Assembly: GCA_002790835.1 (NCBI GenBank)
Contig: PFVX01000031.1
Location: forward strand, 1 to 64,000
Direction: 5' to 3'
Length of the DNA stretch: 64,000 bases
Source of the DNA: a bacterium CG_4_9_14_3_um_filter_65_15
GTDB lineage: Bacteria > Krumholzibacteriota > Krumholzibacteriia > LZORAL124-64-63
Below are positions 1,955 through 61,303 of this stretch, one piece after another. Numbering within the stretch: the stretch's first letter is position 1; each line of letters starts with the position of its first letter. Made by a program: the position numbers and the translations under genes. The notes below the pieces were generated by a model, which saw nothing but the letters and a program-made list of their open reading frames with translations, had not been told where the DNA came from and did not search any database.

Positions 1955-2913
1955 CAGACGTCCTTTCGTCCCACCACCGCCGCCAGGCGGGGCAGTCCGG
2001 TCCCGGGTTCGAGCTCGCCCACGGCGATCAGTGTACCATCGGGGGACAGCATGGTGAAGCGACCGTCCACCGCATCGGGGGTTTCCAGGCGCTTGAGCCA
2101 GACCGGCAGGGGTTGCCCCCCGTCCAGCACGGTGCGGGTCTCGGCGGCGGTCATTTCCAGGCGCGGCAGGTGCGGCAGGGCGCGGTCCAGGGGCAGCAGC
2201 CTCTCGCCGATCTGGTCGGCATCCAGGGGCATGACGTCGCAGGCGCCCTCCACGGCGAACGGCCCCACCCGGGTGCGGCGCAGGGCCCGCAGATAGGCGC
2301 AGGATCCGCAGGCACGCCCGATATCACGCGCCAAGGAACGAATGTAAGTTCCACTACCACAGTCGATTTCCAAATCAACCTCATACAGATCATCAAGCCA
2401 GCGGGAGCCGGTCATCTGCAGACGGGAAATGGTCACGGTGCGGGCGTCGGGCTCGGCAACGCCCTGGCCGGCCCGCGCGAGGCGGTGCAGGGTCTGCCCG
2501 TCGCGCTTGAGGGCCGAAAAGATCGGCGGCACCTGTTGGATCTCCCCCGTGAAGCGCGGAAGAACCACAGCCACCCGGTCGGGGGAGGCGGGCGGCTCAG
2601 CACCGGCCACGATCTCGCCCTCGGCGTCGAGGGTGTCGGTCTCGGCCCCGAAGCGCAGGGTGGCGCAGTAGGTCTTGTCCTGATGCAGCAGGAAGGGCGA
2701 AAGACGGGACCCGCGGCCCACCAGGACGATGAGCAGGCCGGTGGCCAAAGGATCGAGGGTGCCGGCGTGACCCACGCGGAACTTGGGCTCGCCGCGGGGC
2801 GGGCGGCCGCCAGCGGCGTTCAGCAACGCCTTGCGGACCCGGCCCACCACCGAGAAGGACGTCACGTCGCGGGGTTTGTCGGCCAACAGAATGCCGTCGG
2901 GCAGATTTGCCAT
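1954..2913 (-). CDS. truB: tRNA pseudouridine(55) synthase
   Basis: Isomerises U55 of tRNA to pseudouridine in the T-loop. The 319-aa protein opens with GILLADKPRDVTSF and contains the catalytic GHAGTLDPLATG motif with its nucleophilic Asp, then the YIRSLARDIG segment near residue 190, all TruB hallmarks. A C-terminal extension of about 90 residues is in the usual PUA-like position. The start overlaps the stop of the upstream rbfA/nrnA fusion by one base, and its stop overlaps the ribF start. The order rbfA-nrnA-truB-ribF matches the classical nusA-infB operon tail, although here infB is separated from it by a terminator. Confidence 0.96.
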   Translation of the reverse strand: MANLPDGILLADKPRDVTSFSVVGRVRKALLNAAGGRPPRGEPKFRVGHAGTLDPLATGLLIVLVGRGSRLSPFLLHQDKTYCATLRFGAETDTLDAEGEIVAGAEPPASPDRVAVVLPRFTGEIQQVPPIFSALKRDGQTLHRLARAGQGVAEPDARTVTISRLQMTGSRWLDDLYEVDLEIDCGSGTYIRSLARDIGRACGSCAYLRALRRTRVGPFAVEGACDVMPLDADQIGERLLPLDRALPHLPRLEMTAAETRTVLDGGQPLPVWLKRLETPDAVDGRFTMLSPDGTLIAVGELEPGTGLPRLAAVVGRKDV

Positions 2914-4313
2914 CAGTCCAGGGTGCCCACCAGATCGGCCACCAGGGTGTCCAGGATGTCGTCGCGCTCGCCCTCCAGGGTGCAGCCGGAGGCCTGCTTG
3001 TGGCCCCCTCCCCCGTAGCGGGCGGCGACCTGCTGCACGTCACCCTCGCCGCGCACACGCAGGGAAGCGCGCCAGACGCCGGGCTCGGTCTCCTTGATGA
3101 AGGCGATCCGTTCGACCCCGTCCACCGCGGTGGCGATGTTCACGAAGCCCTCGGTGTCGGACAGCGTGCCGCCGGTCTCGGCCAGCATGGCCCGGTCGGC
3201 CACGACGGTGAGAACGCGGCCGGCATGGTGATAGGTGAAGCTGTCCAGCACCTTGCCCAGCAGGGCCAGACCCGCGGGCCGGTAGCGGTGCATGGTGGTG
3301 CGCGAAACCCAGGCGACGTCGACGCCGACGGCCGTCAACCGGCGCGCCAACTCGAAGGTCAACGGGTGGGTGTTGGAGAAGCGGAAGCCGCCGGTGTCGT
3401 TGATCAGACCGGCGTAGATGTTGGTCGCCATGTCCAGCGTGAGTTCGAACGGCTCGCGATCCGGCCCCGGTTTCCGGCCCAGGGTGGTGACGACCTGGTG
3501 GATAAGGGTGCAGGTGGAACAGCTGCGCGGCTCGAGCCAGCCGGGCTCGGGGCCTTTGCGCCCGCTAACCAGGTGGTGGTCGACGCACACGCGGTTCTCG
3601 ATGCCGGCCAGGATGTCCTCCAGCGGCCCGGTGCGGTCGATGCGGTGGCAGTCCACCAGCACCAGGGTGTCGGGGGCCTCGTCGGCCAGAAGCTGGGCGG
3701 CCTTGTCGCTGGTCACGACGCGGTCGTAGCCGGGCAGATCCGTCAGACCCAGCGCGGGATCCTCATACCCCACCACGCGCACCTCGCAGCCCAGGGCCTC
3801 CAGCCCCATGGAAAGGGCCAGCGCGGCGCCGATGGCGTCGGGGTCGGGGTTGAAGTGCGGCACCACCCAGGCCCGTCGGGCGGCGCGTAAGGCGTCGAGC
3901 AGTTCGGCCGGCGGGGTGATGTCGTCCAGGGTCAGCTTGCGCATGCGGTCCTCCTCGGTCTCGAACTCGCCCTGGGAGGCCAGGTCCTCCAGCAGGTCGT
4001 CGATCTGCAGGCCGCGCTGAACCGAATCGTCGAACACGAATCGCAACGCCGGGGCGTGGCGCATGCCCAGGGTCCGCCCCAGTCGCCCCTGCAGGAACCC
4101 GCGGGCCTTCTTCAACCCGGCAAAGCTCTTGGACTGCTCCTCCTCGTCGCCCAGAACCGAGTAGAAAACCTCGGCGACGGAATGGTCCCGGTTCAGCTTG
4201 ACCCGGGTAAGGGTCACGAACCCCACCCGCGGATCCTTGACCGCGATCTGCAACAGATCGCTGAGGACCTTGAGGATGGAGTTGTTCATCTTGTTGGTGC
4301 GGTAGGGATCCAT
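2913..4313 (-). CDS. RbfA - DHH/DHHA1 phosphoesterase (NrnA-type) fusion
   Basis: A single 466-aa frame carries two proteins that are normally separate neighbours. Residues about 1-115 are ribosome-binding factor A (30S maturation): the VKDPRVGFVTLTRVKLNRD segment and the C-terminal RFVFDDSVQRGLQIDDLL segment are typical. Residues about 135-466 are a DHH-family phosphoesterase of the nanoRNase/pAp phosphatase type: HFNPDPDAIGA at 153-163, Asp221, the DHH triad at 245-247, NDTGGFRFSNT at 305-315, and the DHHA1 motif GGGGHKQASG at 434-443. All metal ligands are present, so both halves look active. The start at 4313 has GAAGGA about 6 nt upstream and RbfA homology begins at once. No stop or frameshift lies between the halves. 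Known for the families: RbfA acts on 16S rRNA processing; NrnA degrades 2-5 nt RNAs and pAp. The coupling of these jobs is inference. Confidence 0.93.
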   Translation of the reverse strand: MDPYRTNKMNNSILKVLSDLLQIAVKDPRVGFVTLTRVKLNRDHSVAEVFYSVLGDEEEQSKSFAGLKKARGFLQGRLGRTLGMRHAPALRFVFDDSVQRGLQIDDLLEDLASQGEFETEEDRMRKLTLDDITPPAELLDALRAARRAWVVPHFNPDPDAIGAALALSMGLEALGCEVRVVGYEDPALGLTDLPGYDRVVTSDKAAQLLADEAPDTLVLVDCHRIDRTGPLEDILAGIENRVCVDHHLVSGRKGPEPGWLEPRSCSTCTLIHQVVTTLGRKPGPDREPFELTLDMATNIYAGLINDTGGFRFSNTHPLTFELARRLTAVGVDVAWVSRTTMHRYRPAGLALLGKVLDSFTYHHAGRVLTVVADRAMLAETGGTLSDTEGFVNIATAVDGVERIAFIKETEPGVWRASLRVRGEGDVQQVAARYGGGGHKQASGCTLEGERDDILDTLVADLVGTLD

Positions 4314-4353: not shown

Positions 4354-4380
4354 GAAAAAGAAACCGCTTCGGTGAAGCGG
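4354..4380 (-). terminator. intrinsic terminator in the rbfA leader
   Basis: On the minus strand the RNA forms CCGCUUC-ACC-GAAGCGG, a 7-bp perfect stem with a 3-nt loop, followed at once by UUUCUUUUU. It lies between the promoter at 4405-4433 and the rbfA start at 4313, so it would cut the transcript short before the first gene unless it is overridden. This looks like an attenuator. Alternatively it ends read-through from infB, but hairpin B already does that. Confidence 0.75.
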
Positions 4381-4479: not shown

Positions 4480-4570
4480 CCTGTCGGTGGGTGTGCGCAA
4501 GGAACCGGGATGTCCTCGTGGCTGAGCCCCTGCGGATTACCCGGTTCCTTGGGCACACCCAGCCGACAGG
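4480..4570. repeat. hairpin element A (constant loop, variable stem)
   Basis: Left arm 4480-4509 and right arm 4540-4570 pair over 29 of 30 positions, with one mismatch and one bulge. The 30-nt loop (4510-4539) contains a small inner stem and is 27/30 identical to the loop of element B on the opposite strand. Outside the shared CCGGG/CCCGG base the arms of A and B are unrelated. There is no T-tract, so A alone is not an obvious intrinsic terminator. It starts 20 nt past the stop of the possible relic gene at 4590, the place where a 3-prime-end structure would sit. Confidence 0.85.
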
Positions 4571-4589
4571 AGCCAGCACCGCGCACGCG

Positions 4590-4655
4590 TCATTTGACCA
4601 GGATCATGCGCTTGGTGGCGTTGAAGAGTCCGGCGCCAGCCCTCTCGCAATCAGC
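4590..4655 (-). pseudogene. possible relic of a secreted-protein C-terminus
   Basis: A minus-strand frame ends in GLFNATKRMILVK and a stop at 4590. That ending resembles the last residues of FlgD-like or T9SS-type C-terminal domains (pattern xATRKMVLxK), which are common in FCB bacteria and present in full in the propeller gene at 39608. Only some 15-20 residues look family-like; upstream the frame runs into hairpin B and has no start with a ribosome site. It could be the tail of a deleted gene or chance. Confidence 0.28.
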
Positions 4656-4760
4656 AGGAAAAGGAGAATCCGTCGCAGCGGTAAACCCTCGGGAAATGTT
4701 CGCATACGGCACAATCATACCACAAAGCGCAGGCGCAACACCACTCGGCGAGCTCGTGAG

Positions 4761-4850
4761 CTTCCGCCTGGGAATAAAAAAGGTGCCGGGTAATCCGCAG
4801 GGGCGAAGCCCCGAGGACATCCCGGCACCATTTTTATTCCCAGGCGGAAG
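4761..4850. terminator. hairpin element B; terminator after infB
   Basis: Arms 4761-4790 and 4821-4850 pair at 29 of 30 positions. The stem contains GGTGCCGGG/CCCGGCACC flanked by an A-rich/T-rich stretch, so on the minus strand the inner stem is followed by TTTTTTATT, 2-3 nt past the infB stop. The same layout works on the plus strand (ATTTTTATT), so it is bidirectional in principle. The loop (4791-4820), read on the minus strand, is nearly the same as that of element A. Termination of the rimP-nusA-L7Ae-infB operon is the most economical role. Confidence 0.85.
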
Positions 4851-4852
4851 GC

Positions 4853-7678
4853 TTACAGCTCGGTCCGCTCTATCTCCTCGATCTCATACGCCTCCAGGAT
4901 ATCGCCAACCTGGATGTCGTAGAAGTTCTGCAGGCCGATGCCGCACTCGTAGCCGGTGGCCACTTCCCTCTGGTCGTCCTTGAAGCGCTTGAGCGAGTTG
5001 ACCTTGCCCTCGAAGACCACGACCTCGTCGCGGACCAGGCGGGCCATGGAGTTGCGTTTGATGACGCCGTCCAGGACCATCGACCCGGCCACCTGCCCCG
5101 TCTTGGGGATGGTGAAGACCTGCCGCACCTCGGCGCGGCCCGTGGAGACCTCGCGCTGGATGCTGCCCAGCAGACCGGCCATGGCCTTCTTCAGGGTGTC
5201 GACGGCCTCGTAGATGATGTCGAAGACCTCGATGGTCACGTGGTGCTTGGTCGCCAGCTCGCGGATGGCGCTGCCGGGCCGCATGTGGAACCCGATGATC
5301 ATGGCGCCGGTGTTGTCGGCCAGCAGCACGTCCGACTCGCTGACCGCACCCACGGCCTTGTACACGATCTTGACCTGCACCTCTTCGGTGTTCAGCTCCA
5401 TGAGCTGGTCGGCCAACGCTTCCACCGAACCGGCCACGTCGCCCTTGATGATGATGGGCAGTTCCTTCAGATCGCCGGTGGTCATCATCTCGGCCAGGTT
5501 CTCCAGGTCGATGACCTGCTTGGGACCGATCAGCTGCTGCTGCCGTTGCAGGCTGCGTCGCTTGGCCGCCATCTCGCGGGCCTCGCGTTCGCTCTCCAGC
5601 ACGTAGAAGCGGTCGCCGGCCTGGGGCACGTCGTGGGAACCGAGAACCTCGCAAGGCTCGCCGGGCTTGACCTCCACCAGGGGCTGCCCGCGTTCGTCCA
5701 GGATGGCGCGCACGCGGCCGTCGGTCATGCCCACCAGGAAGGTGTCGCCCACCTTCAGGGTGCCCTGGTCGATGAGCACGGTGAACACCACGCCGCGGCC
5801 GGCCTCCTTCTTGGCTTCGATGACGGTACCGCGGGCGGCGCCCTTGGGGCTGGCCTTCAGCTCCAGCACCTCGGCCTGCAGATGCACCAGCTCGAGCAGC
5901 TTCTCGATGCCGATGCCCTTCTTGGCCGAGATCTCGGCGAAGAGGTCGCTCCCGCCGAACTCCTCGACGGTGATGCCGTGCTGCAGCAGCTCCTGCTTCA
6001 CCCGGTCGGGGGCGGCGTCGGGAAGGTCGATCTTGTTGACCGCCACGATCAGGGGCACGCCGGCCGCCTTGGCGTGGCTGATGGCCTCGACGGTCTGCGG
6101 CATCACGCCGTCGTTGGCCGCGACGATCAGGATCACGATGTCGGTAACCTGGGCGCCGCGCGCGCGCATGGCCGTGAAGGCGGCATGGCCCGGGGTGTCC
6201 AGGAAGGTGATCGGTCCACCGTCGGTCTGCACCGTGTAGGCGCCGATGTGCTGGGTGATGCCGCCGGCCTCGCCGGCGATCACGTTGGTCTTGCGGATGT
6301 TGTCCAGGAGCGAGGTCTTGCCGTGGTCGACGTGGCCCATGACCGTCACCACCGGGGGCCGGCTGGTCAGGTCCTCCTCCTTGACCTCGTCCTGCTCGAG
6401 AACCTCTTCGCCGTATTCGGTGAGGAATTCGACCTCACGATCGAATTCGGCGGCCAGCACCTCGATGTGGTCCTTCTCCAGGCGCTGGTTGATTGTCGCC
6501 ATGATGCCCATGCCGAACAGCTTGGCGATCAGCTCCTGGCTGCGCACCTGCAGCTTCTCGGCCAGCTCCTGCACGGTGATGAACTCGGTGAGCCTGAGCA
6601 CGCTGGTTTCGACAACCACTTCTTCCTCTTCGCCCACGCCGCCCTTGCGACGCTTACGCTTCCCGCGTCCACCGTCCAGCTCGGCCATGGTCTGCTTCAA
6701 TTGGCGCTCCACCTCGGCTTGGTCGACCTTCTTCTTCTTCTTCCGCGTGCGTCCCTTGCGGGAGGACGTCTCGCGCTCGGCTGCTTCGTCCTGGCGACGC
6801 TGGATGGCGGCCTTGATGGAATCGCGGACCGATTCGTTGCTGACGGGGGCCTCGGCGGCGGCCGGCTTGCGAACCTTGGGCGCGGGCCGGATGACGTCGC
6901 CGATCTTGAAGCCGTCGTTTTTCTTGGTGCCCAGACCGGCCAAACGATCAACCGGTTCCGGCGCTTCCTCGGCGGCGGGTTCGGCCGTTTCCGGCTCGGC
7001 CTCTTCGGTCGCGTCCTCGGCCTCGACGAACGGCGATTCGGACGTCTCGGTTTCGGTCTCGGTTTCCACGGGCGACTCGGCGTCGACCTCAGGGGCCGGC
7101 GGCGCGACCACCGGTTCTTCCTCCTCGACCTCCGCCTTGGCCTTGGCCACATCCGCCTTCTTCACGATGCGGGTGCGGGCGTGCTCGTTGCGCTTGGCTT
7201 CGAGGTCGGCCTCCTGGCGCTCTTTTTCCTCGCGCTTGCGGGCCGCATCCTCGGCCTTGGCCTTTTCGACCTCTTCCTTGGCACTCAGGGCGGCCTTGGC
7301 CACCTTGGTCATGGTGCCGGCCTTCTTGATGACCACCACCTGGGGCTTGGCCGGAGCTTTCTTCTTCTTGGCGACCTTCTTCTTGGGCGCCTTCTTCTTG
7401 GGCTCGGGCTCTTCCTCGGGCTGCGGCCGCTCCAGGGGCTTGAGAGCCGCCACGTCCTTGAGCTGGTCGGGGTTCAGCCCGTGGGCCTTGGCGTAGTTCT
7501 CCCTGGCCAGTTCCCGTTTGCGCTGGAAGACGGCTTGCACACGGTCCACATCGTCGTCCTCGACCACGCTCATGTGGCTCTTGACCTGGACCTTCATCTT
7601 CTGCAGAAGATTCATGATCTGCTTGCTGTCGACACCGTAGTGCCGACCCAATTCGTAGACCCGCAGCTTCTTCGCCAA
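4853..7678 (-). CDS. infB: translation initiation factor IF-2
   Basis: GTPase that delivers fMet-tRNA to the 30S subunit. The 941-aa protein has an N-terminal IF2-N domain (KLRVYELGRHYGVDSKQIM), a long Lys/Glu/Ala/Pro-rich linker (about residues 80-340) of low complexity, a second IF2-N segment (ITVQELAEKLQVRSQELIAKLFGMG), the G domain with G1 GHVDHGKTS, G3 DTPGH and G4 NKID, and C-terminal domains II-IV. I start it at TTG 7678 (then AKKLRVYEL, the family consensus) with GGAGG 9 nt upstream; a TTG at 7684 would sit only 3 nt from that site. Last gene of rimP-nusA-L7Ae-infB; hairpin B follows the stop. Confidence 0.97.
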   Translation of the reverse strand: MAKKLRVYELGRHYGVDSKQIMNLLQKMKVQVKSHMSVVEDDDVDRVQAVFQRKRELARENYAKAHGLNPDQLKDVAALKPLERPQPEEEPEPKKKAPKKKVAKKKKAPAKPQVVVIKKAGTMTKVAKAALSAKEEVEKAKAEDAARKREEKERQEADLEAKRNEHARTRIVKKADVAKAKAEVEEEEPVVAPPAPEVDAESPVETETETETSESPFVEAEDATEEAEPETAEPAAEEAPEPVDRLAGLGTKKNDGFKIGDVIRPAPKVRKPAAAEAPVSNESVRDSIKAAIQRRQDEAAERETSSRKGRTRKKKKKVDQAEVERQLKQTMAELDGGRGKRKRRKGGVGEEEEVVVETSVLRLTEFITVQELAEKLQVRSQELIAKLFGMGIMATINQRLEKDHIEVLAAEFDREVEFLTEYGEEVLEQDEVKEEDLTSRPPVVTVMGHVDHGKTSLLDNIRKTNVIAGEAGGITQHIGAYTVQTDGGPITFLDTPGHAAFTAMRARGAQVTDIVILIVAANDGVMPQTVEAISHAKAAGVPLIVAVNKIDLPDAAPDRVKQELLQHGITVEEFGGSDLFAEISAKKGIGIEKLLELVHLQAEVLELKASPKGAARGTVIEAKKEAGRGVVFTVLIDQGTLKVGDTFLVGMTDGRVRAILDERGQPLVEVKPGEPCEVLGSHDVPQAGDRFYVLESEREAREMAAKRRSLQRQQQLIGPKQVIDLENLAEMMTTGDLKELPIIIKGDVAGSVEALADQLMELNTEEVQVKIVYKAVGAVSESDVLLADNTGAMIIGFHMRPGSAIRELATKHHVTIEVFDIIYEAVDTLKKAMAGLLGSIQREVSTGRAEVRQVFTIPKTGQVAGSMVLDGVIKRNSMARLVRDEVVVFEGKVNSLKRFKDDQREVATGYECGIGLQNFYDIQVGDILEAYEIEEIERTEL

Positions 7679-7737
7679 AACCAACTACCTCCAGCCCTGC
7701 CTGAGCAGGCTTGAGCGGCCGTTTGCCGCAATGCGCA

Positions 7738-61153: not shown

Positions 61154-61170
61154 TCGTTTGCGTCCTCCAA

Positions 61171-61303
61171 CTTCTCCCATCCAGACTTTCACTGTCGGCC
61201 CCGGAATCACACCGGATCAGCAGGCGCGGTCCAGGGGTCTGGTGCGCGAGCTCGCGGGCTGTTACCGCCGGTGGGGATTTCCACCCCGCCCCGAAGTTGA
61301 GGG
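61171..61303 (-). promoter_or_regulatory. FMN riboswitch (RFN element)
   Basis: The minus strand carries the conserved blocks of the RFN element in order: TTCGGGGCGGGGTG, CCGGCGGTAACAGCCCGCGAG, GATCCGGTGTGATTCCGGGG, CCGACAGTGAAAGTCTGGAT and GGGAGAAG. All paired regions P1-P6 can be drawn. It sits directly upstream of ribD, so FMN should repress ribD-ribE-ribBA-ribH. Confidence 0.96.

What the first reader, a model, noticed from the sequence alone, without database searches (positions are those of the whole stretch)
4480..4850. Two hairpins with a constant 30-nt loop but unrelated 30-bp stems
Element A (4480-4570) and element B (4761-4850, opposite orientation) each pair 29 of 30 arm positions, yet their arms share no sequence except the CCGGG/CCCGG next to the loop. 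The loops are 27/30 identical, and the differences fall in the small apical stem. Conserved unpaired bases on stems that change but keep pairing is the covariation pattern of a structured RNA or a protein-recognised DNA cruciform, not of a simple copied repeat. B also acts as an intrinsic terminator for infB. I know no described family with this layout; DNA-uptake-sequence terminators are the nearest analogy but there the stem is conserved.
Basis: seen in the sequence. Interest (0 to 1): 0.78.

Follow-up and report, generated by a model that had tools for sequence, protein, structure and literature searches.

The report
Gene-end hairpins sharing one internal motif
Just after the stop codons of many housekeeping genes, two distant groups of bacteria carry very long, near-perfect hairpins whose stems differ from copy to copy but which all display the same short motif, apparently an undescribed kind of gene-ending signal that some cell factor should recognise.

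Summary
A and B carry a 27/30-identical loop on unrelated, nearly fully paired arms. They belong to a large family. The own genome, a Krumholzibacteriota MAG, has at least 18 copies. About 30 of 38 genomes of its family carry copies, and I read 156 of them.

Every copy shows GTCCTC(G/A)...CTG(C/T)GGA with a U·C mismatch and a bulged U when folded. The lower stem is free in sequence (median 36 bp) but pairs; covariation scores are 0.68-0.79 against 0.16 shuffled. Copies sit about 39 nt after stop codons, in sense (69 sense-only, 13 antisense-only). The same genes carry them in different genera (infB, gatD, peroxiredoxin, RNase G). Neighbouring copies are nearly always head-to-head (17 of 18). 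Coriobacteriia have the same motif on other arms after groEL, PFOR and thrB.

Rfam has no match, and I found no description in the open-access papers searched. Best reading: gene-3'-end terminator or mRNA-end hairpins with a factor-binding internal loop. Family and motif are shown; termination and factor are inferred. G·U pairs are rarer than A·C mismatches, so a DNA-level or both-strand role stays open.

The parts
4480..4509 (+). Element A, left arm (free stem)
   Evidence: pairs with 4540-4570
4510..4539 (+). Element A, constant 30-nt apex ATGTCCTCGTGGCTGAGCCCCTGCGGATTA; invariant motif GTCCTCG...CTGCGGA at 4512-4536
4540..4570 (+). Element A, right arm
4821..4850 (-). Element B, left (5') arm; its base is 2 nt after the infB stop codon
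4791..4820 (-). Element B, constant 30-nt apex ATGTCCTCGGGGCTTCGCCCCTGCGGATTA; motif at 4794-4818
4761..4790 (-). Element B, right (3') arm, with CCCGGCACC then TTTTTT (4776-4781 on +) as in an intrinsic terminator, then further pairing
4853..7684 (-). infB (translation initiation factor IF-2), the gene that B follows
   Evidence: ORF; orthologues in 33 of 38 family genomes, several followed by the same element
2913..4313 (-). next gene, RbfA-like N-terminus fused to a DHH-phosphoesterase-like part; A lies antisense upstream of it
   Evidence: ORF; family name from my own reading of the sequence, not searched

Best explanation
A and B are members of an undescribed family of gene-3'-end hairpins. 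Shown: a near-invariant motif, 5'-GUCCUC(G/A) ... CUG(C/U)GGA-3', which in the fold has a U-C mismatch and a bulged U flanking one C-G pair, is carried on a long stem whose sequence is free but whose pairing is kept. The elements lie just after stop codons on the strand of the gene, stay at the same genes across genera, and face each other in pairs. Inferred: the element is transcribed as the 3' end of the mRNA. In Krumholzibacteriota the 9-10 bp GC-rich inner stem followed by a U-rich stretch acts as an intrinsic terminator; in Coriobacteriia, which lack that U-tract, it would resemble U-less ('I-shaped') terminators. The long outer stem closes the mRNA end or stops transcription arriving from either side. 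A trans-acting factor binds the asymmetric motif, which is why that part alone cannot change. Head-to-head pairs such as A and B would insulate an intergenic region from both sides.
For: 156 unique copies with the motif nearly invariant. Covariation 0.683 vs 0.164 and 0.792 vs 0.159 shuffled, and collapse when partners are slid by one column. ORFs of 200 aa or more end within 120 nt on the sense side only at 69 sites, antisense only at 13, p 2e-10. Stop-to-core distance has a median of 39 nt. T is enriched and A depleted 12-20 nt past the core, mirrored on the left. Elements follow infB in G036-G039 and G061 as well as here, and gatD, peroxiredoxin, RNase G, acetate kinase, SdhB and citrate synthase in various genera. 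17 of 18 neighbouring pairs are head-to-head. In genera without it, infB is often followed by another hairpin. In Coriobacteriia the same motif follows thrB, groEL and PFOR at 32-62 nt.
Against: No transcript data. Inside the stems G-U pairs are fewer than A-C mismatches (30 vs 57, p 0.005 without correction for shared ancestry), the reverse of what selection on the sense RNA helix alone predicts. If RNA polymerase stopped at the U-tract the outer right arm would not be transcribed, yet it pairs. A and some other copies follow no gene in sense. No binding protein was identified.
Confidence: 0.55

Rival explanations
1. The element works as DNA: the palindrome extrudes a hairpin or cruciform and a protein recognises the mismatched motif, somewhat as integron integrase reads extrahelical bases of attC sites.
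For: Stem pairing is strict Watson-Crick; G-U is no more tolerated than A-C. The motif's non-paired positions appear only in a folded strand. Contigs often end at elements, which fits strong palindromes.
Against: Strong bias to the coding strand and to ~39 nt after stop codons; U-tract at fixed distance. Strict pairing would also follow if transcripts of both strands must fold.
Confidence: 0.2
2. It is a mobile repeat (REP/MITE-like) whose motif spreads into or with terminator palindromes.
For: Multi-copy, patchy between phyla; identical apex in Krumholzibacteriota and Coriobacteriia. At thrB, L292 carries an element plus the right half of a different, older one, so new elements do arise.
Against: Copies share no arms and no target-site duplication was seen. 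The same genes keep elements across genera. The REP-transposase family PF01797 is absent from the own genome and from 35 of 38 family genomes. No copy in viral contigs for two patterns. The one apparent empty site (L291) reads as a centre deletion at a GCCCC repeat.
Confidence: 0.12
3. The stems are kept perfect by mutation, not selection: template switching during replication copies one arm onto the other (quasi-palindrome correction), while only the motif is selected.
For: Between orthologous copies 75 pair positions changed on both sides against 31 changed on one side. G-U intermediates are rare. Stems run into the coding sequence of the upstream gene.
Against: At infB in one genus a single pair is C-G, C-A (mismatch) and T-A in three species, and another C-A mismatch is shared by three species: stepwise change, uncorrected. 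Arms diverge no faster than the DNA beyond them.
Confidence: 0.1
4. Ordinary strong terminators whose loops look alike by descent, with no factor.
For: Location and U-tract.
Against: Motif invariant in 154-156 of 156 copies at most positions while everything around it turns over. Non-paired bases are conserved. Recurs in another phylum. In ~190 kb of element-containing regions of the own genome almost every long perfect hairpin carries the motif.
Confidence: 0.08

Closest known systems
Intrinsic (Rho-independent) terminators, including U-less 'I-shaped' ones reported for actinobacteria (from memory)
   Same: hairpin just after the stop codon; GC-rich stem then U-rich stretch in Krumholzibacteriota
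   Different: stem 2-4 times longer, U-tract buried in the stem, and a sequence-constant internal motif
DNA-uptake-sequence terminators (Neisseria, Haemophilus; from memory)
   Same: constant sequence at gene ends, often as inverted pairs
   Different: there the constant sequence forms the stem and there are hundreds to thousands of copies; here the stem is free and copies number about 1-30 per genome
REP/BIME repeats with RAYT transposase
   Same: dispersed palindromes downstream of genes
   Different: REP stems are conserved; here they are not, and the transposase family is missing
L17 downstream element (PMC2864571) and other 3'-UTR structured RNAs
   Same: conserved structure in potential 3' UTRs
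   Different: tied to one gene and rich in G-U pairs; here many genes and almost no G-U
Integron attC sites (from memory)
   Same: structure-conserved palindromes right after stop codons, with asymmetric unpaired bases
   Different: attC keeps its base and varies at the tip; here the tip motif is constant and the base free

Membership tests
Intrinsic terminator | GC-rich hairpin followed at once by a U-tract | tested here: met
   Krumholzibacteriota: T 0.37-0.46 at most positions 12-20 nt past the core, after a GC-rich inner stem
Intrinsic terminator | U-tract also present in the Coriobacteriia members | tested here: not met
   no T enrichment at that place
Intrinsic terminator | transcripts end there | not testable with these tools
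   no RNA data
REP/RAYT | conserved stem sequence | tested here: not met
   arms differ from copy to copy
REP/RAYT | Y1 transposase in the genome | tested here: not met
   absent from own genome, present in 3 of 38
Any Rfam 15 family | score above gathering threshold | tested here: not met
   only microRNA-like and other sub-threshold matches
Integron attC | conserved core sites at the stem base | tested here: not met
   no shared sequence at the stem base
Integron attC | IntI integrase in the genome | not tested
   not searched
DUS terminators | constant sequence in the stem, very high copy number | tested here: not met
   18 strong copies, arms free

The most novel reading that the evidence does not exclude
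A previously unknown, sequence-specific gene-ending system shared by Krumholzibacteriota and Coriobacteriia: one dedicated factor recognises an asymmetric internal-loop motif shown on an arbitrary double helix, so that any palindrome carrying the motif becomes a terminator, mRNA cap or boundary, possibly reading the structure on both strands.
Probability: 0.35. Interest if true: 0.88.

Novelty: new variant of a known kind. Interest (0 to 1): 0.74.

Why it matters
A constant motif on free stems, kept at the same genes over large evolutionary distance and recurring in another phylum, implies a recognition partner that nobody has named. It would show how high-GC bacteria end or protect messages without a classical terminator. 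It also gives an unusually clean natural data set on how long palindromes evolve: stepwise compensation or copying.

Tried and rejected
Chance. Sequencing-adapter or assembly artefact: rejected because the elements lie at orthologous genes in many independent assemblies. REP/RAYT mobility: no transposase. Spread by viruses: no hits in viral contigs for two patterns. Known Rfam family: none. Block replacement of arms: arms diverge no faster than the flanks. Insertion of the motif into pre-existing plain long hairpins: almost no plain long hairpins in the own-genome regions scanned, and L291 looks like a deletion. A motif copy without arms (C12:161626) was found but only one. Streptomyces-like G715 has one copy in which the UCC:GGA pairs appear changed to UGC:GCG; the other 9 long hairpins of its 379-kb contig lack the motif. 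Literature: Krumholzibacteri + terminator gave none; Collinsella/Coriobacteri searches and three structured-RNA papers, searched by term, gave no matching description.

Full report
OBSERVATION. A and B exist as described. Both strands of each fold with z-scores from -9 to -12. The 40-nt core pattern occurs twice in the window and in none of 100 shuffles. The only detail to adjust is that A's outer pairing needs a one-base offset.

THE FAMILY. Six copies in the own genome match the 30-nt pattern exactly. Printing their flanks showed near-perfect arms that share no sequence. A covariance model (R1) found 18 strong copies in the own genome and copies in about 30 of 38 genomes of the same family, none above noise in the other families of the phylum. 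I read about 155 sites in full. In 156 unique copies the motif GTCCTC(G/A)...CTG(C/T)GGA is invariant or nearly so; the stem has a median of 36 pairs, and the part above the motif varies from 3 nt to about 40 nt. Six of the 26 pairs of the first alignment, all in the apex, never vary, and 17 covary. In 33 distinct Coriobacteriia matches the outer 16 pairs all covary. In ~190 kb of element-containing regions of the own genome almost all perfect hairpins with arms of 14 bp or more carry the motif.

POSITION. Elements lie in sense just after stop codons (69 sense-only, 13 antisense-only, 37 both, 16 neither). The stop-to-core distance is 33-46 nt in the middle half of cases. In 38% the stop codon lies inside the stem, so the right arm is complementary to the last codons. 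The genes are housekeeping: infB, gatD, peroxiredoxin, RNase G, a response regulator, acetate kinase, SdhB, citrate synthase, glutamate-type dehydrogenase, a TPP-dependent (2-oxoacid oxidoreductase-like) enzyme and others. The same genes have elements in different genera. Neighbouring elements are head-to-head in 17 of 18 cases, 132-1000 bp apart, usually between convergent genes. A/B and a second pair in this genome (C7:20745/20892) are exceptions: there the second element is antisense, upstream of the next co-directional unit, rbfA in the window and the tmRNA gene in the other. The tmRNA copy has counterparts in two genomes of another genus.

HOW THE ARMS EVOLVE. At infB in one genus the arms are recognisably orthologous and change stepwise; one pair is C-G, C-A (mismatch) and T-A in three species, and another C-A mismatch is shared. 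Over 22 ortholog pairs, 75 pair positions changed on both sides with pairing kept and 31 on one side, and simultaneous changes drop from 81 to 31-34 when partners are slid by one. The arms diverge no faster than the DNA beyond them. So the arms are inherited and drift under a pairing constraint. The single-sided mismatches are A-C more often than G-U (57 vs 30). A sense-RNA helix should tolerate G-U, so the constraint may act on both strands or on DNA. This is the main unexplained point.

TERMINATOR FEATURES. In Krumholzibacteriota the inner 9-10 pairs are GC-rich and the right arm is T-rich 12-20 nt past the core. B has CCCGGCACC-TTTTTT there. Pairing continues for another 15-25 bp, which ordinary terminators lack. 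Related genomes without the element at infB often have other hairpins in the same place, including a second family with a three-way apex on long free outer arms.

BEYOND THE PHYLUM. A scan of 84,980 species genomes for the exact apex hit only Krumholzibacteriota and two Coriobacteriia contigs, where it follows groEL and PFOR on unrelated arms (gene names from my own reading of the ORFs). The model hits 52 of 300 Coriobacteriia genomes at E<=1e-4 and almost nothing else in 397 Actinomycetota. At thrB the motif can be an internal loop under a free 25-bp upper stem. One strain lacks exactly the centre of the palindrome. A Streptomyces-like genome has one copy whose motif-flanking pairs appear changed together.

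MECHANISM. Shown: family, motif, pairing constraint, position, pair orientation. Inferred: transcription through it, termination, factor binding. I put 0.55 on a terminator or mRNA-end hairpin with a factor-binding internal loop, 0.20 on DNA-hairpin recognition, and the rest on the other rivals.

NOVELTY. No Rfam 15 family matches. Searches of open-access papers found no description; subscription papers and supplementary files were not searched, so a prior description cannot be excluded. By position it works like a terminator; the constant internal motif on free long stems sets it apart, hence 'new variant of a known kind'.

Noticed in passing
L112, L114, L115, L122, L123 (infB 3' ends of genera g8 and g9); likely also L121, L124, L127: A second gene-end element: constant three-way apex (CGCCGGCC..., GCCATCCATGGC..., CAGACACCC) on long, near-perfect, free outer arms, in the same place as the motif-bearing hairpin in other genera.
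   Followed up: partly
all Krumholzibacteriota elements; G000 gene set: Genes before elements avoid TGA: TGA 30/131 and TAG 78/131, against 35/56 and 15/56 in operon-terminal genes of the own genome without elements; in Coriobacteriia 0 TGA among the listed upstream genes. Unexplained.
   Followed up: partly
L007:5746-5807 (+), L015, L156: An antisense copy sits just upstream of the tmRNA gene in three genomes of two genera.
   Followed up: partly
window 4364-4380 (-): A small intrinsic-terminator-like hairpin with a T-tract lies about 50 nt upstream of the rbfA-like start; possible attenuator.
   Followed up: no
window 2913-4313 (-): RbfA-like and DHH-phosphoesterase-like sequences appear joined in one ORF.
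   Followed up: no
window 61165-61302 (-): FMN riboswitch (Rfam RF00050, 109.7 bits).
   Followed up: no
G058:C52, G037:C608, G039:C34, G039:C60, G037:C353 and others: Many contigs end within or just after an element, so copy numbers from MAGs are underestimates.
   Followed up: no
L292: An element at thrB is followed by the right half of a different, L286-like element: evidence of turnover.
   Followed up: partly
G000:C12:161626-161648 (+): An intact motif without long arms, the only clearly armless copy seen in the own genome.
   Followed up: no
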